Source: an uncultured Prevotellaceae bacterium
Lineage (GTDB): Bacteria; Bacteroidota; Bacteroidia; Bacteroidales; Bacteroidaceae
DNA: 14,281 nt
Assembly (NCBI GenBank): GCA_947306845.1
Contig: CAMZHP010000052.1
Span: forward strand, 1-14,281
Direction of reading: 5' to 3'
Shown: positions 2-12,085 of the stretch, in pieces
How the letters are laid out: each line of letters begins with the position of its first letter
Position numbering within the stretch: position 1 is the stretch's first letter
The notes under the pieces: generated by a model
Told to the model about the DNA's origin: nothing
Seen by the model: the letters and a program-made list of their open reading frames with translations, nothing else
Database searches by the model: none
Program-made: the position numbers and the translations under genes

Positions 2-892
2 TTCGATGATGAAGTCCCACATTTCCTCGTAGGTCTCAGCAGCAGCCTTGTTAGGATGACTTATTTCCCGTCATTGCTTATCCTTACCATTATTACCGAT
101 TTTACTCCCGACGCTGACAAGACCTCCTCTTGGAGTGGTTGGTGGTTGGCCGTTCCTGTCCTAGCCATTATCTATGGCGCCGTCCTCTGGGTAATCAGAC
201 AAATTGAGCCTTACGAACCTGAGACAGCCAGCAAAGGACTGATGTCGCGCACCACATGGGTTAACCTACTGACCATGAGTGTCATGTTCATCACAGTGGG
301 CATATTCAGCAATGGTGATGAGGCCTTTCACTATCGAATGAGAATGGAACAACTCATCCTCCACGAGAAAGTTGATGATGCACTCAAAGTAGGTAAGCGT
401 TCCCTGGCTACCAGCCCCTCGCTGACCATGCTGAGAGCATACGCCTTATCCCAGCAAGGTCTCTTGGGAGAACGTTTTTTCCAATATCCTGTGCCTGAAG
501 GGATAGAGCAATTGGCCAATGACAGTATCTCGATGCAGGCCATTCTCATTCCCGACACCCTGATTAGAATAATTACAGAAACGCCACGCTCACGGGTGGA
601 CTACAAACTGATCAACCTGCTTCTCGACAAAGACCTCAACACTTTTGCCTCACTGGCCACAAAAGTTTATCCCGACTCTGTCATGCCAAAACACTATGCT
701 GAGGCACTGGCATATTATCATTATTATTCGGGACAACCCAAGGAAGAATCATCCGACCGTGTGACAGAGACTGATTTCAATGATTTTAGGAAAATGGAAA
801 AAGAATATCACGGAAAAGAGTTGCGAAACCAACTCCGTCGGACATTTGGTAATACATATTGGTATTATTATAAATATGGTGGCAGTAATTGA
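2..892 (+). CDS. Bacteroidetes membrane protein of unknown function, 3' part (possibly DUF6057-like)
   Basis: The frame is open from base 2 to the TGA at 890-892, and codons before the ATG at 56 read through to the window edge, so this is the C-terminal part of a longer protein and that ATG need not be the start. About 297 residues are visible. Counting from the ATG at 56, hydrophobic segments at about residues 28-47 (rich in W, L, V, A, I) and 66-85 look like membrane helices. The rest is soluble, mostly helical and TPR-like in feel (about 90-140), ending in a Tyr-rich tail. The pattern of N-terminal helices followed by a long soluble domain reminds me of Bacteroidetes DUF6057 proteins; that is memory, not a search, and no function can be given. 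It lies on the same strand upstream of groES but is separated by about 105 bases containing a promoter-like site, so it is probably a separate unit. Confidence 0.7.
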   Translation, partial: FDDEVPHFLVGLSSSLVRMTYFPSLLILTIITDFTPDADKTSSWSGWWLAVPVLAIIYGAVLWVIRQIEPYEPETASKGLMSRTTWVNLLTMSVMFITVGIFSNGDEAFHYRMRMEQLILHEKVDDALKVGKRSLATSPSLTMLRAYALSQQGLLGERFFQYPVPEGIEQLANDSISMQAILIPDTLIRIITETPRSRVDYKLINLLLDKDLNTFASLATKVYPDSVMPKHYAEALAYYHYYSGQPKEESSDRVTETDFNDFRKMEKEYHGKELRNQLRRTFGNTYWYYYKYGGSN

Positions 893-3384: not shown

Positions 3385-4866
3385 ATGGAAAATAAGCAAT
3401 TCTTTTTTGCCGTTGATTTGGGAGCCACCAGCGGCCGAACAATCGTAGGCACTCTTGATCAAGGAAAAATCTCTTTGGAGGAAATTACCCGTTTCGACAA
3501 CAACCTTATCCAGACCGGTGGACATTTCTACTGGGATGTGTATGCGCTGTATGATGAAATCATCAATGGGCTCAAAATTGTAGCCCAGCGAGAGATTCCC
3601 ATCACATCCATCGGAATAGACACATGGGGTGTGGACTTCGTCTGCATTGGCGATGATGATGCCATCCTTCGCAACCCTCTTTCATACCGCGATCCCCATA
3701 CTTTTGGCAAGATGGAGGCTTTTTTTGAGAAATGTGTGGACAGGAAAAAAGTATATGATATTACAGGCATTCAGTTCATGAATTTCAACTCATTATTCCA
3801 ACTCTATGCCATGAGAGAGAACGGCGACACTGCACTGAAGAACGCTTCAAAAATACTTTTTGTCCCCGACTGCCTGAGTTACATGCTCACAGGCAAGCAA
3901 GTATGCGAGTACACCATTGCGTCAACCTCGCAGTTGCTTGATCCCCGGACGAAAGAACTCGACCGTGACTTGTTGGCTAGTGTGGGACTTTCCCGTGAAT
4001 TATTTGGAGAAATGATCAATCCTTCCCAAGTCATAGGCACATTGACCGAAGAAGTGCAATCGATGACCGGAATTGGTGCCATACCTGTCGTAGCTGTGGC
4101 AGGACATGACACCGCCAGTGCAGTGGCTGCTGTGCCAGCACGTGATGAGCATTTTGCCTATTTGAGCAGTGGCACCTGGAGTTTGATGGGAATTGAGACC
4201 AAGGATGCTGTCATCAACGATCGCAGTTACGACCTCAATTTCACCAATGAAGGGGGAGTAGAGGGAACGACACGTTTCTTGAAAAACATCTGTGGTATGT
4301 GGCTGTATGAGCGGTGCCGCAAGGAATGGACCGATGCGCCCAAGTCACATAAAGAGCTTCAGGCAGAAGCTATGAAGGTCACTCCTTTCCAAAGTCTGAT
4401 CAACCCTGATGACCAAATCTTTGCCAACCCCGCCTCCATGGTGGATGCCATTCAAGACTACTGCAAGGGCACTGGCCAGCATGTACCTGAGGGCTATGCA
4501 GAAATCTGCCGCTGCATCTTCGACAGTCTGGCACTGCGATACAAGCAAGTATTTAAATGGCTGAAGGAGTTTGCCGCCTTCCCCATCAACACACTGCACA
4601 TTATAGGTGGAGGCTCACTCAACGAATACCTCGACCAATTCACGGCCAACTCCACGGGCATTGAGGTATGGGCAGGGCCTCAGGAATGCACAGCCATCGG
4701 CAACATCATGTTACAGGCTAAAGCATGCGGCATCGTGGATGATATCTGGCAGATGCGTGGTATCATCGCCAATAGCATAGAGATGAAGCGTTTCGTCCCA
4801 CAGGACAAGGAAATGTGGGATAACGCTTACCAACAATATCTTGAAGTCACAGGACAAAAGGAATAA
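3385..4866 (+). CDS. rhaB: L-rhamnulokinase
   Basis: This 493-residue FGGY-family kinase phosphorylates L-rhamnulose to L-rhamnulose-1-phosphate with ATP, the second step of rhamnose breakdown in the cytoplasm. The N-terminal FGGY domain opens with AVDLGATSGR (9-18) and has GIDTWGVDF at 77-85. The C-terminal domain contains AGHDTASA (239-246; D242 is the expected catalytic base), the nucleotide-binding SSGTWSLMG (261-269) and GGGS (408-411). The length is normal for RhaB. The identity is backed by the next gene, rhamnose isomerase, 29 bases downstream, and by the aldolase and regulator across the convergent junction. Bacteroides calls this enzyme RhaK. The start is the first ATG after the promoter-like site and gives the full N-terminal motif. 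Confidence 0.95.
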   Translation: MENKQFFFAVDLGATSGRTIVGTLDQGKISLEEITRFDNNLIQTGGHFYWDVYALYDEIINGLKIVAQREIPITSIGIDTWGVDFVCIGDDDAILRNPLSYRDPHTFGKMEAFFEKCVDRKKVYDITGIQFMNFNSLFQLYAMRENGDTALKNASKILFVPDCLSYMLTGKQVCEYTIASTSQLLDPRTKELDRDLLASVGLSRELFGEMINPSQVIGTLTEEVQSMTGIGAIPVVAVAGHDTASAVAAVPARDEHFAYLSSGTWSLMGIETKDAVINDRSYDLNFTNEGGVEGTTRFLKNICGMWLYERCRKEWTDAPKSHKELQAEAMKVTPFQSLINPDDQIFANPASMVDAIQDYCKGTGQHVPEGYAEICRCIFDSLALRYKQVFKWLKEFAAFPINTLHIIGGGSLNEYLDQFTANSTGIEVWAGPQECTAIGNIMLQAKACGIVDDIWQMRGIIANSIEMKRFVPQDKEMWDNAYQQYLEVTGQKE

Positions 4867-4895
4867 ACCTAATCATCAATATAAATAAAAAACAA

Positions 4896-6146
4896 ATGAA
4901 ATCAGAACTGATCGAGAAAGCTTATGAAGTGGCGAAGGAACGCTATGCCGCCATTGGTGTCAATACCGACAAGGTGATTGACGAGTTAGAAAAACAGCAA
5001 ATCTCTCTGCACTGCTGGCAGTCAGATGATGTGGTAGGATTTGAACGCAATGAAGCCCTTTCCGGCGGAATCCAAACCACCGGCAACTATCCCGGCCGTG
5101 CCCGCACGATTGACGAGGTGCGCCAGGATATCGAGTTTGTCAAGACGCTTCTTGCTGGCAACCACCGCCTCAACCTCCATGAAATCTACGGAGATTTCGG
5201 AGGCCAGTTTGTTGATCGTGACCAAGTGGAGGTTAAGCACTTCCAAAGTTGGATGGACTGGGCAAAAGAGAACAAAATGATGCTGGACTTCAACTCCACC
5301 TCCTTCTCCCATCCCAAGAGTGGTGACCTTACCCTCTCCAATCCCGACAAGGGCATTCGCGACTTCTGGATAGAGCACACCAAGCGTTGCCGCCGAATCG
5401 CCGATGCTATGGGAAAGGCCCAGGGCGATCCCTGCATCATGAACATCTGGGTACACGATGGCTCCAAAGACATGCCTGTGCAGAGAAAGAAATATCGTGA
5501 GATTCTCGCCGCCTCTCTTGATGAAATCATGGAAGAAAAGCTCGATGGTGTCAAGAACTGCTTCGAAGCCAAACTCTTCGGTATCGGTCTTGAGAGTTAC
5601 ACCGTTGGTTCTCATGATTTCTACACCGCATACTGCGCTACCCGCAAGCAGATGTACACCATCGACACCGGTCACTATGAGCAGACCGAGAATGTGAGCG
5701 ACTTCGTATCCACTCTCCTCATGTACGTGCCTGAGCTGATGCTGCATGTCAGCCGTCCGGTGCGCTGGGACTCAGACCATGTGACCATCATGAACGACCA
5801 GACCCTCGACCTGTTCAAAGAACTGGTTCGCTCCAACGGTCTCCATCGTGCCCATGTCGGCCTTGACTACTTCGATGCCAGCATCAACCGTATCGGTGCT
5901 TACATTGTCGGCGCAAGAGCCACCCAAAAGTGCATTCTGCAGGCACTTCTCGAACCGGTAGCACGACTCCGTGAATTGGAGGACAACGGCCAATACTTTG
6001 AGCGTCTTGCCCTGATGGAGGAAGCCAAGTCGATGCCGTTTGGCGCCGTGTACGACTATTTCAATCTCAAGAACAATGTTCCTGTGGGCGAAGAGTTCAT
6101 CCCTGCCGTCCAGCAGTATGAGAAGGATGTCACCTCGAAACGCTAA
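4896..6146 (+). CDS. rhaA: L-rhamnose isomerase
   Basis: This 416-residue metal-dependent isomerase converts L-rhamnose to L-rhamnulose, the first catabolic step (RhaI in Bacteroides naming). Family motifs visible are CWQSDDVVGFE (40-50), LNLHEIYGD (92-100), DFNSTSFSHP (131-140), IDTGHYEQTE (256-265) and HVSRPVRWDSDHV (284-296). With a constant shift of ten residues, the metal ligands I recall from the E. coli enzyme fall on E224, D257, H284, D292, D294 and D324, so the site looks intact. The length matches the family (about 419 in E. coli). The start is preceded by an A-rich leader without a Shine-Dalgarno. It is 29 bases after rhaB and 20 bases before the permease, clearly in one operon. 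Confidence 0.96.
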   Translation: MKSELIEKAYEVAKERYAAIGVNTDKVIDELEKQQISLHCWQSDDVVGFERNEALSGGIQTTGNYPGRARTIDEVRQDIEFVKTLLAGNHRLNLHEIYGDFGGQFVDRDQVEVKHFQSWMDWAKENKMMLDFNSTSFSHPKSGDLTLSNPDKGIRDFWIEHTKRCRRIADAMGKAQGDPCIMNIWVHDGSKDMPVQRKKYREILAASLDEIMEEKLDGVKNCFEAKLFGIGLESYTVGSHDFYTAYCATRKQMYTIDTGHYEQTENVSDFVSTLLMYVPELMLHVSRPVRWDSDHVTIMNDQTLDLFKELVRSNGLHRAHVGLDYFDASINRIGAYIVGARATQKCILQALLEPVARLRELEDNGQYFERLALMEEAKSMPFGAVYDYFNLKNNVPVGEEFIPAVQQYEKDVTSKR

Positions 6147-6166
6147 CCCAGAAATCCCTATTCATC

Positions 6167-7516
6167 ATGTCAAACAGCAAAGGAAGTCTGCGGAGCACGA
6201 TTGCCGTGTCGCTCACCAATTACCTGGATGCCGGGGCCATCGTGGCAGGTGCCAGCGGACTCACGTTATGGAAGAACTACCTTGGACTCTCTGAGGTGCA
6301 TTTAGGTTGGCTCAACTTCATCAGCGCCAACTGCTTGGGAGCAGCCATCGGAGCCATCATCGGAGGTTTCCTGGCCGATAAGTACGGACGTAAGTTCATT
6401 TACACTTACAACCTGCTTGTCTACATGCTTGGAGTGGCACTCGTCATCTGCAGTGTCAATTTCCCCATGTTGCTCTGCGGCTTTCTTGTCACAGGAATCT
6501 CTGTGGGAATAGGTGTTCCTGCATCATGGACGTATATTTCTGAAAGTTCAGAGGTCAACAACCGCGGACGCAACATTTGCATTTCCCAGATGTCATGGGG
6601 TTTCGGTCCTATGGTCATCCTGCTTTTGGGCATGCTGTTCGCCCCCGGCGGCTATCTCTTCGGATGGGTAGAAGGAATCGCCCACGCTGTCGGTGGTGAT
6701 GCGCTCACTCAAGAATCCGTCAATGTGTTCAGTTCGCGCATCGTCTTCTTCTCGCTGTTCATCGTCGCTTTCATTGCATGGAACTTGCAGCGCAAGCTCG
6801 ATGAGAGCAGTGAGTGGAAAGCTGCCAAGGCAGCTGCTAAGGCCAAGGGAGAAGACACCGGATTGCTGCATGCCATCAGTGTGTTGTTCTCCAACAAGAT
6901 TGCCGTTCGCACCGTCATTTTCCTCGCTACCATCTACCTCACATGGAACTTAGTGGCATCAGTGATGGGATTCTTCCAGCCCCATATCTACGAGACAGCA
7001 GGAGGTGTAAGCAATGAGCAAGCCAACTGGATGAACTGCATCCAATGGGCCATCATCGTCGGTGTGACATTCTTTGTATCCAAGCTTATTGACAAGACGA
7101 GCCACAAAGCCATCTACACCTTCGGATTGCTGGTGGCCATCAGTGCCTGGCTCGTCATCGTCACCATAGGCGTCAATGGTAAGGCAGGCCTGTGGCTGTT
7201 TGCCATCCTTTGGGGAATTCAGGGTGGCACCTCACCCCAGATTTTCTATGCATTATGGGGTTCCGAACTGTTCCCGGCCAAATTCCGTGCAGGTGCTCAG
7301 GGTCTGATGTTCTTCATCGTCCGTGGTCTGTCCGCAGTATGGGGACTTATCTTCACCTACATTTACGGTGAGAATGGCGAGGGCTTCACCATCGCAGCAT
7401 ATTGCATGATAGTTCTGTTGCTCATTTCGCTTGTTGTGGGTTATATCGGATGCCCCAACACCCGCGGCAGAACACTTGACAGTATCGCCAAGGAGCGTTA
7501 CGGAGATGTGTACTAA
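6167..7516 (+). CDS. MFS sugar permease, probable L-rhamnose transporter
   Basis: This 449-residue protein has the hydrophobic profile of a 12-helix major facilitator. The loop 2-3 signature is GGFLADKYGRK (66-76). Sugar-porter-like motifs lie in the second half: WGSELFPAKFRAGAQGL (364-380, like the ELFPTxxR motif) and CPNTRGRTLDSI (429-440, like PETKGRTLEEI). A charged, Ala/Lys-rich central loop at about 209-230 separates the two six-helix bundles. Being last in the rhaB-rhaA operon, 20 bases after rhaA, it most likely brings rhamnose across the inner membrane by cation symport; that substrate is inferred from position only. E. coli uses the unrelated RhaT carrier of the DMT superfamily, so this would be a non-homologous replacement. 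A 15-bp terminator follows. Confidence 0.85.
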   Translation: MSNSKGSLRSTIAVSLTNYLDAGAIVAGASGLTLWKNYLGLSEVHLGWLNFISANCLGAAIGAIIGGFLADKYGRKFIYTYNLLVYMLGVALVICSVNFPMLLCGFLVTGISVGIGVPASWTYISESSEVNNRGRNICISQMSWGFGPMVILLLGMLFAPGGYLFGWVEGIAHAVGGDALTQESVNVFSSRIVFFSLFIVAFIAWNLQRKLDESSEWKAAKAAAKAKGEDTGLLHAISVLFSNKIAVRTVIFLATIYLTWNLVASVMGFFQPHIYETAGGVSNEQANWMNCIQWAIIVGVTFFVSKLIDKTSHKAIYTFGLLVAISAWLVIVTIGVNGKAGLWLFAILWGIQGGTSPQIFYALWGSELFPAKFRAGAQGLMFFIVRGLSAVWGLIFTYIYGENGEGFTIAAYCMIVLLLISLVVGYIGCPNTRGRTLDSIAKERYGDVY

Positions 7517-7554
7517 CCACTGCACAGAATTGCCGATATTTAGCCGATTATAAC

Positions 7555-7588
7555 AAAGCAGTCCGTCTGATTCCAGACGGACTGCTTT
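7555..7588. terminator. Hairpin terminator between the convergent rhamnose units (probably bidirectional)
   Basis: A perfect 15-bp stem pairs 7555-7569 with 7574-7588 around the 4-base loop ATTC. It lies 38 bases after the permease stop and 47 bases beyond the end of rhaD on the other strand. Because the stem begins with AAA and ends with TTT it can serve both directions, though the T run is short on each side. Confidence 0.85.
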
Positions 7589-7635
7589 ATTTGCTATTGA
7601 TACAAAAGGTTGTTGAGGACAAACTTGCAAATGAT

Positions 7636-8445
7636 TTATTTCGGCAGGTTGAATGCCACTGTCATCTCTTTCATCTGCTCCTGGGTCATGCCATCAGGAA
7701 TAAAGCCCATGCAGCGGGCGTTGATGTATATCTTCGCACTTTTCGACAATACGTCAATTTGGTCGAACGCATCCATCACATCCAAACCCTGTGCGAAAAC
7801 GCCGTGCTTCTCCCACAGCACCACATCATAGTCATCAAGTTCTTTCAGCGTGGCATCAGCCAACTCCACGCTGCCCGGCAATGTATAGGGAATGATGCCA
7901 AGGCCTAACGGACAGAAAGCCTTTGTCTCCGGAATCATACTCCAGAGGATGTTGGTCAGCACGTCTTTCTTCAAGAATTCCTTGTTATGGCTCATGGCCA
8001 CCAGTTCTATGGGATGGGTGTGGACGGTAGCTGTGTAAGCCGAACCCTTCTCTATGAGATGATTATGCACTGTCAGGTGCGAAGGCAGTTCGCTGGTAGG
8101 CTGCACCAATTCATCTGCAATAATCACATAGCTGGCGCAATCGTCAAGGATGCGGATCACACTGCCGTTGCTCATGGGCCAACGTGCGAGGTCGCGCATC
8201 CGCTTTCCAGTTCCCTTGCAATAGAAATAGCATCCTTTCAGGTATGGCAGTGTCACCCCGATTTGTTTCACTTCGCTGATGGCTGGCAGTGCCCTTAACT
8301 CATCGTCCACATACTGGGTGATGTTCACGGTGATGTTGCCTCCGTTGCGCTCAGCCCATCCATTTTGCCACAGATACCCAGCCACTTCGGCAATTTTCTC
8401 AATTTCAGCCCGCAAGTCTGGGCGATTTTCCAAAATACTTTTCAT
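7636..8445 (-). CDS. rhaD: L-rhamnulose-1-phosphate aldolase
   Basis: This class II, zinc-dependent aldolase splits L-rhamnulose-1-phosphate into DHAP and L-lactaldehyde. From the start chosen here it is 269 residues (E. coli RhaD is 274). Visible features are the substrate phosphate-binding ERNGGN (32-37) and KGTGKR (77-82), the expected catalytic Glu at 119 in SELPSHL, and the zinc ligands in HTH (142-144) and H214 in WEKHG. A longer frame from an ATG at 8484 would add 13 residues and overlap the regulator stop by 4 bases. I prefer the Met at 8445 because it gives the family's usual N-terminus (MKSILENRP) after an A-rich leader. It lies downstream of the AraC-type regulator on the same strand. 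No lactaldehyde reductase gene accompanies it, unlike the Bacteroides rhaKIPAO arrangement I recall. Confidence 0.93.
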   Translation of the reverse strand: MKSILENRPDLRAEIEKIAEVAGYLWQNGWAERNGGNITVNITQYVDDELRALPAISEVKQIGVTLPYLKGCYFYCKGTGKRMRDLARWPMSNGSVIRILDDCASYVIIADELVQPTSELPSHLTVHNHLIEKGSAYTATVHTHPIELVAMSHNKEFLKKDVLTNILWSMIPETKAFCPLGLGIIPYTLPGSVELADATLKELDDYDVVLWEKHGVFAQGLDVMDAFDQIDVLSKSAKIYINARCMGFIPDGMTQEQMKEMTVAFNLPK

Positions 8446-8480
8446 AGTTTTCAAATAGTTTATATGTTTTAATAAGCATT

Positions 8481-9374
8481 TCATTCATTTGCTCTCCCAG
8501 CTGTTCCCTGCCTTCTGAATTCGCTGGGTTTCACGCCTGTTTTCAATCGAAACCTGGACGAGAAATAATCCGGAGAGTCAAAATTGAGCCTGTAGGCAAT
8601 TTCCTTGACACTCATCTTGGTCGTGGACAGCAATTCCTTGGCTCTCTGCAAGCGCAAGTCCTGCTGGTAAAGAGCAGGAGAGATTCCTGTATATTGTTTG
8701 AAGAGCTTGCGGAAATTTGAATAGCTGACTCCGAGGGAATCTGCAAGTTGCTGAATGGTAAGGTCGCTTTCCAATGACTCTCGGATTTGTATGCGGGCCT
8801 TGGTGACCATTTCCACATGTCCATGATTCTTGTTGAGCTCTATATTACGCTCCAAAGCATACATGGCACCTATGAGATGATTGACGATTCCAGCCAACAT
8901 CTGTTGTGAATGTGCAGCTTCCTCGAAAGCGGCTTTCTGTGCCGTCTTATAGAGTTCAATGATTTCTGATGAGTACCCCACATGATAAATTGGCTTGGAA
9001 GGGTGGAGAAAGCCGTAGTTCACACGGTCGTCAATATTGCGGCCCTTGAAACCTATCCAAAAACTTTTCCATTGTGATTGAGGCAAAGGGCCATAAGTAT
9101 GCCATTCTCCGGGGAACAGCAAGAAGATGTCTCCTGCCTTGATCGGAGACTTCTCTATGTGTGTTGACTGGAAAAAGCCTTCGCCCTCCAACAAATAAAG
9201 CATCTGATATTCATTCAGCACACGGCCCAGTTTCATATCAAAGTAATAACCATCCGCGTGTCCCTTGGTAGGATAAGGTTCGCCAGCTTCAACGGCATCA
9301 TACCCTACAGTGCTGACTGTCAGGCCCCACAATGCGTCATGCTCATTGGCTACCAAATATCTGCTGTCTTGCAT
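8481..9374 (-). CDS. rhaR: AraC-family regulator, probable rhamnose activator RhaR
   Basis: This 297-residue protein has an N-terminal cupin-like sensing domain (about 30-150, with GDIFLLFPGEWHTYGP at 81-96) and a C-terminal AraC DNA-binding domain (about 190-287). The first helix-turn-helix lies at about 206-227 (QQLADSLGVSYSNFRKLFK) and the second at about 255-276, including DSPDYFSSRFRLKTGVKPSEFR, the AraC-family hallmark. Being transcribed just ahead of rhaD and adjacent to all other rhamnose genes, it is very probably the L-rhamnose-responsive activator of both units, like RhaR of Bacteroides; the effector is inferred from context. It has its own promoter-like site at 9426-9457 and shares the upstream region with the divergent gene at 9568. 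Its stop is 35 bases from the preferred rhaD start. Confidence 0.88.
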   Translation of the reverse strand: MQDSRYLVANEHDALWGLTVSTVGYDAVEAGEPYPTKGHADGYYFDMKLGRVLNEYQMLYLLEGEGFFQSTHIEKSPIKAGDIFLLFPGEWHTYGPLPQSQWKSFWIGFKGRNIDDRVNYGFLHPSKPIYHVGYSSEIIELYKTAQKAAFEEAAHSQQMLAGIVNHLIGAMYALERNIELNKNHGHVEMVTKARIQIRESLESDLTIQQLADSLGVSYSNFRKLFKQYTGISPALYQQDLRLQRAKELLSTTKMSVKEIAYRLNFDSPDYFSSRFRLKTGVKPSEFRRQGTAGRANE

Positions 9375-9567: not shown

Positions 9568-9804
9568 ATGGATAAGAGAACTATCTTGCATATCATTTTC
9601 CTGTTGCTGCTCTCTGGGGCACTCATTTATCTCACAGGATCATTCCTCATGGCACTTGGCATTATGATGCTTTTGTTGCTTATCGATTCTTTCTTGCTCA
9701 AATATGACAACAAGCGACGTCAGGAGTGGGAGGAGCAACAAGCCAAAGACAGGATGACGGAGAATGACAAAAATGAGGATTTGCACAGTCAAGAGCAACC
9801 TTAG
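9568..9804 (+). CDS. Small two-helix membrane protein of unknown function
   Basis: This 78-residue protein has two hydrophobic segments, about 6-22 and 25-44, joined by a very short turn (a helical hairpin), then a highly charged tail (about 45-78) rich in K, R, E, D, Q and N. By the positive-inside tendency (MDKR at the start, KYDNKRR after helix 2) both ends are probably cytoplasmic. I do not recognise a family. It is the first gene after a good promoter and ends 17 bases before the kinase-RapZC fusion, so it is probably part of that operon. It might anchor or regulate a partner at the inner membrane, but nothing in the sequence proves this. Reality as a gene is supported by the promoter, tight spacing and sensible membrane topology. 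Confidence 0.75.
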   Translation: MDKRTILHIIFLLLLSGALIYLTGSFLMALGIMMLLLLIDSFLLKYDNKRRQEWEEQQAKDRMTENDKNEDLHSQEQP

Positions 9805-9821
9805 TTATCACACAGACGATC

Positions 9822-11357
9822 ATGCAACAACTGAGGCAATTATATATATCCCATTTCGGAAAGGAACCATTCTCCATAGAGGCTTTGGCAGGAGCCGGCA
9901 GCAACCGTGCCTATTACAGGATGGGCAATGAAGAGGGCGATACCGTCATCGGCGTTGTGGGCACCAGCCGTGAAGAGGATGAAGCCTTCATTTACCTGTC
10001 ACGACATTTCCGAAAACGTCAGCTTCCGGTCCCGGAGGTGATTGCGGCCAGTGATGACGGCATGAGATATCTTCAGGAAGATTTGGGCAGGACGTCACTC
10101 TTCGATGTCCTTAAGAATGCCAGAGAGGCGGGCGGGCGCTACAATCTGAAGGAGCAAGCCTTGTTGACGGAAACTATCAGGCAACTCCCCAATTTTCAGA
10201 TTCGAGGTGCCCGTGGATTGGAATGGAGCCATTGCTATCCTCAGCCCGAATTCAATGAGGATAATGTGCTGTTCGACCTCAACTATTTCAAGTATTGCTT
10301 TCTTAAGCCAACCGACCTCGACTTCCACGAACTGAAGTTGGAGGCCAATTTCAGGTTGATGGCCAAAGATTTGCTGACAGAGCCTACCGATAGTTTCATG
10401 TACCGCGATTTTCAGGCACGCAATGTGATGCTGGATAAGAACGGCAAGCCATCATTCATTGATTTCCAGGGTGGCCGTAAGGGACCATATTACTATGATC
10501 TGGCCTCATTCCTCTGGCAGGCCTCAGCACGCTACCCTGATAAGCTGCGAAGAAAACTGATCTACGAATACTATTATTCGCTCAAACAGTTTACAGAGGT
10601 TCCCTCCAAACGTCATTTCGTGGAGCGGTTGTCACTCTTTGTGCTTTTCCGCACTTTGCAGGTACTCGGCGCATACGGATATAGAGGTTATTTCGAGCGG
10701 AAGAAGCATTTTATAGACTCCATCCCACCTGCTATCGACAACCTCCGTCGGATTTTGGACACAGTAGATTTCCATTATCCCTATCTGATGGATGTGCTGC
10801 GCCGACTCACCCTTCTGCCACAATTCGAAGTGAAGGATGATGAGCCTCGTCAACGGACAGACGGATACCGGACTACAGACAGCAATGTCTATCAAGCCCA
10901 TACCAACGACGGTCCCGCTACTTTCTCCAAATACGACGGCAAAGGCCCCTTGGTGGTGAGGGTCTTCAGTTTCTCCTACAGGAAAGGCATTCCTGAGGAC
11001 GAGTCTGGCAACGGTGGCGGCTATGTGTTCGACTGCCGAAGTACGCACAATCCAGGACGCTATGAGCCCTACAAGCAACTGACAGGTCTTGACGAACCAG
11101 TGATTCGTTTTCTGGAAGACGACGGAGAGATCATCACTTTCCTCGAGCATATCTACCAACTGGCGGATGCTCATGTAGCCCGTTATCTGCAACGAGGTTT
11201 CACCAGTCTCATGTTCTCGTTCGGATGTACGGGTGGTCAGCACAGGAGTGTCTATTCAGCCCAGCATCTCGCTGAGCACATCAACAGGAAATACGGCATA
11301 GAGGTGAGAATATGCCATCGTGAACAAGGTATCAACCAAATATTGCCCGCAAGATGA
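9822..11357 (+). CDS. APH-fold sugar kinase (AmgK-like) fused to a RapZ C-terminal domain
   Basis: The protein has 511 residues and two domains. Residues 1-330 form an aminoglycoside-phosphotransferase-like kinase. It has a glycine-rich ATP loop LAGAGSNRAYYRM (22-34), the catalytic loop YRDFQARNVML (194-204, catalytic D196, N201) and the metal-binding FIDFQGGRKGPYYYDLASFL (212-231, D214). The DFQ...GP..YDLAS pattern resembles AmgK, which phosphorylates MurNAc/GlcNAc at the anomeric carbon. A hydrophilic linker (about 335-375) leads to a RapZ C-terminal domain (about 377-502): VFSFSYRKGIPED, VFDCRSTHNPGRY, TGLDEPV, GCTGGQHRSV (468-477) and CHRE (498-501). The RapZ P-loop NTPase half is absent and replaced by the kinase. 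In E. coli the GCTGGxHRSV region binds glucosamine-6-phosphate; the basic tail used for RNA binding there is missing here. It overlaps the next gene by 4 bases (ATGA), so translation is probably coupled. The substrate is inferred. Confidence 0.88.
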   Translation: MQQLRQLYISHFGKEPFSIEALAGAGSNRAYYRMGNEEGDTVIGVVGTSREEDEAFIYLSRHFRKRQLPVPEVIAASDDGMRYLQEDLGRTSLFDVLKNAREAGGRYNLKEQALLTETIRQLPNFQIRGARGLEWSHCYPQPEFNEDNVLFDLNYFKYCFLKPTDLDFHELKLEANFRLMAKDLLTEPTDSFMYRDFQARNVMLDKNGKPSFIDFQGGRKGPYYYDLASFLWQASARYPDKLRRKLIYEYYYSLKQFTEVPSKRHFVERLSLFVLFRTLQVLGAYGYRGYFERKKHFIDSIPPAIDNLRRILDTVDFHYPYLMDVLRRLTLLPQFEVKDDEPRQRTDGYRTTDSNVYQAHTNDGPATFSKYDGKGPLVVRVFSFSYRKGIPEDESGNGGGYVFDCRSTHNPGRYEPYKQLTGLDEPVIRFLEDDGEIITFLEHIYQLADAHVARYLQRGFTSLMFSFGCTGGQHRSVYSAQHLAEHINRKYGIEVRICHREQGINQILPAR

Positions 11358-12085
11358 GACAGGCCATGATATTTGCAGCAGGATTGGGTACGAGGCTCAA
11401 GCCCATCACAGACCACATGCCAAAAGCATTGGTCAGGGTGGGGGAGAAACCGCTTCTCGACCATGTGCTCGACAAGATGCAAGATGCCGGTTTTGAGCGC
11501 ATTGTCATCAACATCCACCATTTTGCAGATCAGATCGTGGACTATGTGAAGTCACATCCCCGTGACGGTATGGAGATTTTGTTTTCAGATGAGCGGGAAG
11601 CCCTGTTGGAAACTGGCGGAGGATTGCGCAAGGCAGCATCTTTGTTCTCACCCGACAGCCATGTGCTGATTCACAATGTGGATATTTTGAGCAACGTCGA
11701 TATCGGTCAACTCTACGAGCTGTCGTCAAAAGTGGATGCCACACTTTTGGTCAGCGAGCGCCAGACAAGCCGATACCTACTCTTTGATGATGACATGCTT
11801 CTGAAAGGGTGGACACATATCGGGACAGGCGAGGTGCGCTCTCCCTATCCAGATTTGGATCCGAAGAGATACACAAAACTGGCTTTTTCTGGCATTCATG
11901 TCATATCCCCGGCATTGTTGCGGATGATGCAACCTTGGCCAGAGAGATTCAGCATCATCGACTTCTATCTGTCACAATGTGACAAGATTCGTATCACGGG
12001 GCATCTGAAAAAGGACCTGCGACTCATGGACGTCGGCAAACTGGAAACCTTGGAGGACGCCAATCGGTTCATTACCCAATTATAG
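11354..12085 (+). CDS. murU: Sugar-1-phosphate nucleotidyltransferase, MurU-like
   Basis: This 243-residue nucleotidyltransferase has the signature [11 protein letters not shown] (9-19) and [18 protein letters not shown] (22-39) that binds the NTP phosphates. LLETGGGL (84-91), HNVDIL (107-112, with D110 a likely metal ligand) and [10 protein letters not shown] (224-233) follow. There is no C-terminal left-handed helix, so it is not GlmU. The short, single-domain form and the position directly after an AmgK-like kinase, overlapping it by 4 bases, point to MurU, which makes UDP-MurNAc from MurNAc-1-phosphate and bypasses de novo synthesis. Glucose-, mannose- or other sugar-1-phosphate transferases have the same fold, so the substrate is not certain. 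guaA follows 41 bases downstream and may be co-transcribed. Confidence 0.8.

What the first reader, a model, noticed from the sequence alone, without database searches (positions are those of the whole stretch)
9822..11357. Sugar kinase fused to a RapZ sensor domain: possible amino-sugar-gated cell-wall recycling kinase
Seen: an APH-fold kinase with D196/N201/D214 intact and the DFQ...GP..YDLAS pattern is joined by a hydrophilic linker to a RapZ C-terminal domain with GCTGGQHRSV intact. The RapZ NTPase half is gone. Known: in E. coli the RapZ C-terminal domain binds glucosamine-6-phosphate and controls GlmS through the sRNAs GlmY/GlmZ; AmgK phosphorylates MurNAc/GlcNAc at C1. Inferred: the fused domain senses amino-sugar phosphate and tunes the kinase, so salvage is balanced against de novo UDP-amino-sugar synthesis without any sRNA. 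The basic RNA-binding tail is missing, which fits a metabolite role rather than an RNA role.
Basis: partly seen in the sequence, partly recalled or inferred. Interest (0 to 1): 0.8.

Follow-up and report, generated by a model that had tools for sequence, protein, structure and literature searches.

The report
Cell-wall sugar kinase with RapZ domain
A Prevotella-like bacterium's protein joins an enzyme that probably salvages the cell-wall sugar MurNAc to the sugar-phosphate-binding half of the regulator RapZ; the pairing recurs in other Bacteroidota and may show what that half of RapZ does when no small RNA is involved.

The parts
9822..11357 (+). Kinase-RapZC fusion gene, 511 aa plus stop
   Evidence: ORF; Pfam APH + PapZ_C
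9876..10562 (+). APH-fold kinase core, aa 19-247; catalytic D196, N201, D214
   Evidence: invariant; motifs of 51 kinases printed (second motif missed by the pattern in L162)
10833..10943 (+). hydrophilic linker, aa 338-374, low pLDDT
10953..11327 (+). RapZ C-terminal domain, aa 378-502
11007..11021 (+). GNGGG loop insert (aa 396-400), absent from 7 of 7 canonical RapZ compared
   Evidence: GGG invariant in 28 of 28
11049..11060 (+). NPGR motif (aa 410-413) in place of E. coli NPHW; H190 equivalent is G412
11226..11246 (+). phosphate loop C469-T-G-G-Q-H-R475, equivalent to E. coli C247-R253 (C-x5-R)
11354..12085 (+). MurU-like nucleotidyltransferase, 243 aa, overlaps the fusion gene by 4 bp
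   Evidence: NCBIfam MurU 126 bits, best; under cut-off 370; best PDB sequence matches 4y7t, then 8hhd named MurNAc-1-P uridylyltransferase

Best explanation
The gene encodes an AmgK-like anomeric kinase that phosphorylates MurNAc (and possibly GlcNAc) at C1; the overlapping MurU-like gene then makes UDP-MurNAc, so wall sugar is reused without going through MurQ. The RapZ-type C-terminal domain binds a phosphorylated amino sugar at its conserved C-x5-R-S loop and tunes the kinase, matching salvage to the amino-sugar phosphate pool. [quoted passage not shown] Inferred: kinase substrate, ligand, and regulation. Ligand identity is open because the pocket differs from that of E. coli RapZ.
Against: Kinase (62 bits against 550) and MurU (126 against 370) score under curated cut-offs. 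H190 is replaced by Gly and a loop is inserted. RapZC is more conserved than the kinase in 592 of 630 fused pairs, unusual for a mere regulator. It also exists as a separate 133-139 aa protein; in two genomes it is unlinked and the kinase elsewhere is a weaker match (51.6 and 27.9 bits, no MurU beside it), so regulation in cis is not universal. No binding or activity data. In 16 of 80 Prevotellaceae loci with 8 kb of downstream sequence no MurU was found.
Confidence: 0.5

Rival explanations
1. The RapZC domain is an enzyme: a cysteine-dependent sugar-6-phosphate phosphatase (C-x5-R-S loop) that turns MurNAc-6-phosphate into MurNAc and hands it to the kinase, doing the job that the unrelated MupP does in Pseudomonas.
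For: The loop pattern was present in all 139 RapZ-bearing loci held. In E. coli C247A and C247S are inactive, the authors suggest the -SH may be catalytic, and CTD crystals with GlcN6P showed density that is likely a transformed product (PMC9841335, passages). B. subtilis YvcJ is reported to have phosphatase activity (PMC7525490, passage). All 12 genomes with AnmK but no MurQ, which would make MurNAc-6-P with no MurQ to use it, have RapZC and the kinase; AnmK with the kinase always comes with RapZC (25 of 25), while the kinase without RapZC never has AnmK (0 of 64). High CTD conservation and free-standing copies suit an enzyme.
Against: 11 of 36 RapZC genomes lack AnmK, as do 6 of 6 Prevotellaceae tested, two of which had no BadF-type kinase match either. 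63 of the 64 RapZC-free kinase genomes carry one kinase type (over 100 bits), so the AnmK contrast may be one lineage event. No phosphatase fold appeared among the structure rows shown (not an exclusion). A HAD phosphatase elsewhere was not searched for.
Confidence: 0.2
2. The CTD is mainly a dimerisation or scaffold module that holds kinase and MurU together for channelling; the ligand pocket is secondary.
For: E. coli RapZ-CTD can dimerise on its own (PMC7073468, passage). Triple fusions and tight gene order point to selection for proximity.
Against: Many of the invariant residues are in the phosphate loop and the loops before it; a scaffold would not need them. Two genomes keep the domain unlinked to the kinase.
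Confidence: 0.15
3. The CTD binds RNA as in E. coli RapZ and controls expression of wall-sugar genes.
For: E. coli RapZ-CTD dimers bind the sRNAs without the NTPase half (PMC9841335, passages).
Against: No basic tail like that of E. coli, H190 lost, no full-length RapZ frame among 36 hits.
Confidence: 0.05

Closest known systems
AmgK-MurU anabolic MurNAc recycling (Pseudomonas; PMC5371407, passages)
   Same: APH-fold kinase next to a MurU-like uridylyltransferase; complementary to MurQ across genomes; AmgK is the kinase's best NCBIfam match
   Different: sequence far below the AmgK and MurU equivalog cut-offs; carries a RapZ C-terminal domain; AnmK absent from 11 of 36 sampled RapZC genomes
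RapZ (E. coli; YvcJ in B. subtilis)
   Same: C-terminal domain fold and phosphate loop C/T/G/H/R
   Different: no NTPase half, no basic RNA-binding tail, H190 replaced by Gly, GGG-containing loop insert, fused or adjacent to a sugar kinase; separate clade 100/100
MupP (MurNAc-6-P phosphatase; HAD fold recalled)
   Same: the rival reading would give RapZC this role; MupP too goes with AmgK
   Different: unrelated fold; no activity shown here
Tannerella forsythia MurNAc salvage (MurT, MurK, MurQ, proposed AmgK/MurU; PMC7670621, passages)
   Same: Bacteroidota MurNAc salvage with AmgK/MurU proposed
   Different: that paper's main text has no mention of RapZ; whether its AmgK is the fused form was not checked

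Membership tests
AmgK | APH fold with intact catalytic residues | tested here: met
AmgK | score over NCBIfam equivalog cut-off (550 bits) | tested here: not met
   62 bits, the best AmgK-type match of the kinase part; so called AmgK-like, not AmgK
AmgK | genomic link to a MurU-like gene | tested here: met
   window 4-bp overlap; 48 of 80 within 300 bp
AmgK | MurNAc/GlcNAc C1-kinase activity | not testable with these tools
   -
MurU (gene 11354-12085) | score over NCBIfam cut-off (370 or 250 bits) | tested here: not met
   126 and 124 bits, best two families, next 73
RapZ | RapZ C-terminal domain (PF22740) and fold | tested here: met
RapZ | N-terminal Walker NTPase domain | tested here: not met
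   no such Pfam hit; kinase instead
RapZ | complete CTD pocket H190, T248, G249, H252, R253 (plus C247) | tested here: not met
   five of six kept; H190 is Gly
RapZ | basic RNA-binding tail | tested here: not met
RapZ | binds GlcN6P | not testable with these tools
C-x5-R phosphatase (PTP-like) | C-x2-G-x2-R-S/T loop (motif recalled) | tested here: met
   CTGGQHRS in the window; pattern in all 139 RapZ-bearing loci and 357 of 360 listed proteins
C-x5-R phosphatase (PTP-like) | PTP-type fold | tested here: inconclusive

The most novel reading that the evidence does not exclude
RapZC is a catalytic domain: a PTP-loop sugar-6-phosphate phosphatase that feeds MurNAc from MurNAc-6-phosphate to the fused C1-kinase, so one polypeptide (with MurU fused, three active sites) moves phosphate from C6 to C1 and makes UDP-MurNAc. 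RapZ in E. coli would then be an RNA-binding derivative of such an enzyme.
Probability: 0.17. Interest if true: 0.88.

Novelty: new variant of a known kind. Interest (0 to 1): 0.62.

Why it matters
What RapZ does outside enterobacteria is open; authors of the E. coli work speculate that signalling in response to metabolite binding is its primordial function (PMC7073468, passage). Here the RapZ ligand domain is physically tied to one enzyme in one pathway, without NTPase half or RNA tail, and none of the 36 hits in 296 Bacteroidota genomes lies in a full-length RapZ frame. One purified protein can test whether the domain senses or converts an amino-sugar phosphate. Two Bacteroidales records name this kinase 'RNase adapter RapZ', which misleads.

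Tried and rejected
The full-length model (17 close homologues) was weak in the C-terminal part (mean pLDDT 72) and the rows of its PDB search were dominated by kinase-fold entries; it was replaced by a model of the C-terminal domain alone. A PTP-type phosphatase fold was looked for in the structure matches: none in the rows shown, which is not an exclusion. I first read the 12 AnmK+ MurQ- genomes as strong evidence for a phosphatase. The larger table shows that among kinases of the lower-scoring type (under 80 bits) RapZC is present in 36 of 37 genomes, whether or not AnmK is there (G015 is the exception), so the AnmK contrast rests mostly on one other kinase type. BadF-type kinases (PF01869) were sought as another MurNAc-6-P source: 30 of 41 RapZC genomes have a match at E<=1e-5, but the family is too broad to conclude. 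Separate kinase and RapZC genes as the ancestral state: the kinase tree, rooted at the midpoint only, places separate genes among fused ones (L120 beside L102 at 100/97, six others with nine fused at 93/98), so fission looks likelier. Distribution outside Bacteroidota was not surveyed except by tblastn of plasmid records, where 4 of 49 matching records, all Bacteroidota, covered at least 80% of the query. My first gene lists missed MurU in L166 (RapZC-free) and in L123 (separate genes); a tblastn recheck found both.

Full report
What is there. The ORF at 9822-11357 is 511 codons plus stop. Pfam finds an APH kinase (aa 19-247, 54.8 bits) and the RapZ C-terminal domain (aa 378-502, 108.5 bits), both over cut-off, and no RapZ NTPase domain. 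By sequence the nearest solved structures are E. coli RapZ for the C-terminal part (5o5s, E 1e-13) and a bacterial APH-family protein, 3csv, for the kinase. The best NCBIfam match of the kinase part is AmgK (NF045759, 62 bits, cut-off 550). The next gene, which overlaps by 4 bp, has MurU as its two best NCBIfam matches (126 and 124 bits; cut-offs 370 and 250; next family 73). Both are therefore called AmgK-like and MurU-like, not members.

The pocket is not simply the E. coli one. E. coli residues H190, T248, G249, H252 and R253, with C247 nearby, form the sulphate/malonate pocket proposed for GlcN6P (PMC9841335 and PMC5737377, passages). In the window C469, T470, G471, H474 and R475 are kept, but H190 is G412, followed by R413. 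Among 360 listed homologues (the 120 best of each of three searches) the motif reads NPGR in 240 and NPGK in 119, with one pattern miss; the loop pattern was found in 357 of 360 (the three misses were not examined). Canonical RapZ from seven records has H in six and Y in one, and none has the GGG-containing insert that precedes the FD.R strand in the Bacteroidota class. In a tree of 52 domains the 45 Bacteroidota and 7 canonical domains are split at 100/100.

How common. Eighty loci were fetched as best relatives from GTDB genomes; record titles point to Prevotellaceae, and 80 of 80 hold both parts in one open frame of 509-760 aa. A MurU-like gene lies within 300 bp downstream in 48, farther on the same strand in 9, inverted in 1, and was not found in 22, of which 6 have under 3.7 kb of downstream sequence. 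L009 fuses all three parts, as do P0024 and P0029-P0035, 8 of 120 listed proteins. Records named Parabacteroides distasonis, Bacteroides finegoldii, Phocaeicola massiliensis and Prevotella sp. oral taxon 299 also carry the fusion; the first two are annotated 'RNase adapter RapZ', with a nucleotidyltransferase gene next.

Phylum survey. In 296 Bacteroidota genomes drawn by the tool, 36 have the RapZ C-terminal domain: 27 in frames of 478-526 aa and 9 in frames of 134-155 aa; none in a frame of RapZ length. Of the 9 short ones, 7 lie between a kinase gene and a MurU-like gene, and 2 (L121, L122) have neither nearby; in those two genomes the only AmgK-like matches are elsewhere and weaker (51.6 and 27.9 bits) with no MurU beside them. 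Of the 27 fused, 21 have a MurU-like match in the 3.4-kb locus, searched with the window's MurU only. In the kinase tree (51 rows, midpoint root) separate genes lie among fused ones (L120 beside L102_fused, 100/97; six rows with nine fused at 93/98), so fission after fusion, with neighbourhood kept, looks likelier than the reverse. Relatives of the free-standing form are named from Chryseobacterium and Kaistella.

Pathway profile. Over the same 296 genomes (RapZC; AnmK E<=1e-5; AmgK-like E<=1e-5; MurQ E<=1e-40; table) the patterns RapZC/AmgK-like/AnmK/MurQ are: ++++ 13, +++- 12, ++-+ 3, ++-- 8, -+-- 64, --++ 181, ---+ 13, ---- 2. So no RapZC genome lacks an AmgK-like match; 294 of 296 have MurQ or the kinase, and 16 both. 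None of the 100 AmgK-like genomes has a match reaching the NCBIfam cut-off. A similar either-or pattern is described for MurQ and AmgK-MurU in proteobacteria (PMC5371407, passage), which supports MurNAc as substrate. In ten RapZC-free kinase loci (L163-L172) a MurU-like gene lies beside the kinase in 9, the tenth being cut by a contig end; NamZ coordinates fall close by in 8 of the 10; in L170, the only one tested, a sodium:solute symporter follows.

Mechanism. The sensor reading rests on homology: E. coli RapZ-CTD alone binds GlcN6P at nanomolar affinity (PMC7073468, passages), the fold and phosphate loop are kept, and the domain is tied to a kinase in the same metabolic field. Sensing a universal metabolite would also fit its retention in Prevotellaceae, 6 of 6 of which lack AnmK and NamZ. 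Against it stand the changed pocket, the free-standing copies, and the fact that RapZC is more conserved than the kinase in 592 of 630 pairs of fused proteins (54% against 45% mean identity).

Main rival. The loop reads C-x2-G-x2-R-S (PTP-type motif, recalled). E. coli C247A and C247S are inactive, and CTD crystals with GlcN6P showed density that is likely a transformed product (PMC9841335, passages). YvcJ is reported to have phosphatase activity (PMC7525490, passage). The 12 genomes with AnmK but no MurQ all have RapZC, and 25 of 25 genomes with AnmK plus the kinase do too, against 0 of 64 kinase genomes without RapZC having AnmK. But 63 of those 64 share one higher-scoring kinase type, so the contrast may be a single lineage event; 11 of 36 RapZC genomes lack AnmK; and no phosphatase fold was seen in the rows shown. 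I put it at about 0.2.

Literature. Searches of the open-access library gave no paper holding both RapZ and AmgK, none with RapZ and Prevotella, and nothing on this fusion in the titles and abstract starts listed. Of six papers I read passages only, of the rest the listings. Subscription papers were mostly not covered.

Verdict. Observation confirmed; kinase-MurU MurNAc salvage well supported; amino-sugar sensing plausible but unproven. It is a recurrent Bacteroidota variant of a known pathway that makes the non-RNA role of the RapZ C-terminal domain testable.

Noticed in passing
window 9568-9804 (+): A 78-aa ORF with a hydrophobic N-terminal half lies 17 bp upstream of the fusion gene; tblastn (E<=1e-5) finds a relative near the same place in 26 of 80 loci. 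No function assigned.
   Followed up: partly
window 3385-9374: A rhamnose-type cluster (kinase, isomerase, transporter, aldolase, AraC regulator; names from my reading of the sequences, only the AraC gene run through Pfam) lies between groESL and the fusion gene; in many other Prevotellaceae loci groEL is within about 2 kb upstream of it.
   Followed up: partly
L163-L171: Kinase, MurU-like gene and NamZ exo-MurNAc-ase close together without RapZC, in L170 followed by a sodium:solute symporter: a likely MurNAc scavenging neighbourhood.
   Followed up: partly
G236, G006, G275: BadF-type kinase directly beside a MurQ match, recalling the T. forsythia MurK-MurQ cluster (coordinates).
   Followed up: no
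G011 and G277: AnmK lies about 11 and 16 kb from RapZC on long contigs; may be chance.
   Followed up: no
P0070, P0075, P0140: Three of 360 listed homologues did not match the CTGGxHRS pattern; not examined.
   Followed up: no
window 56-892: ORF whose best stretch matches only the last part of DUF6057 (profile 471-568 of 569): perhaps a cut or shortened form.
   Followed up: no
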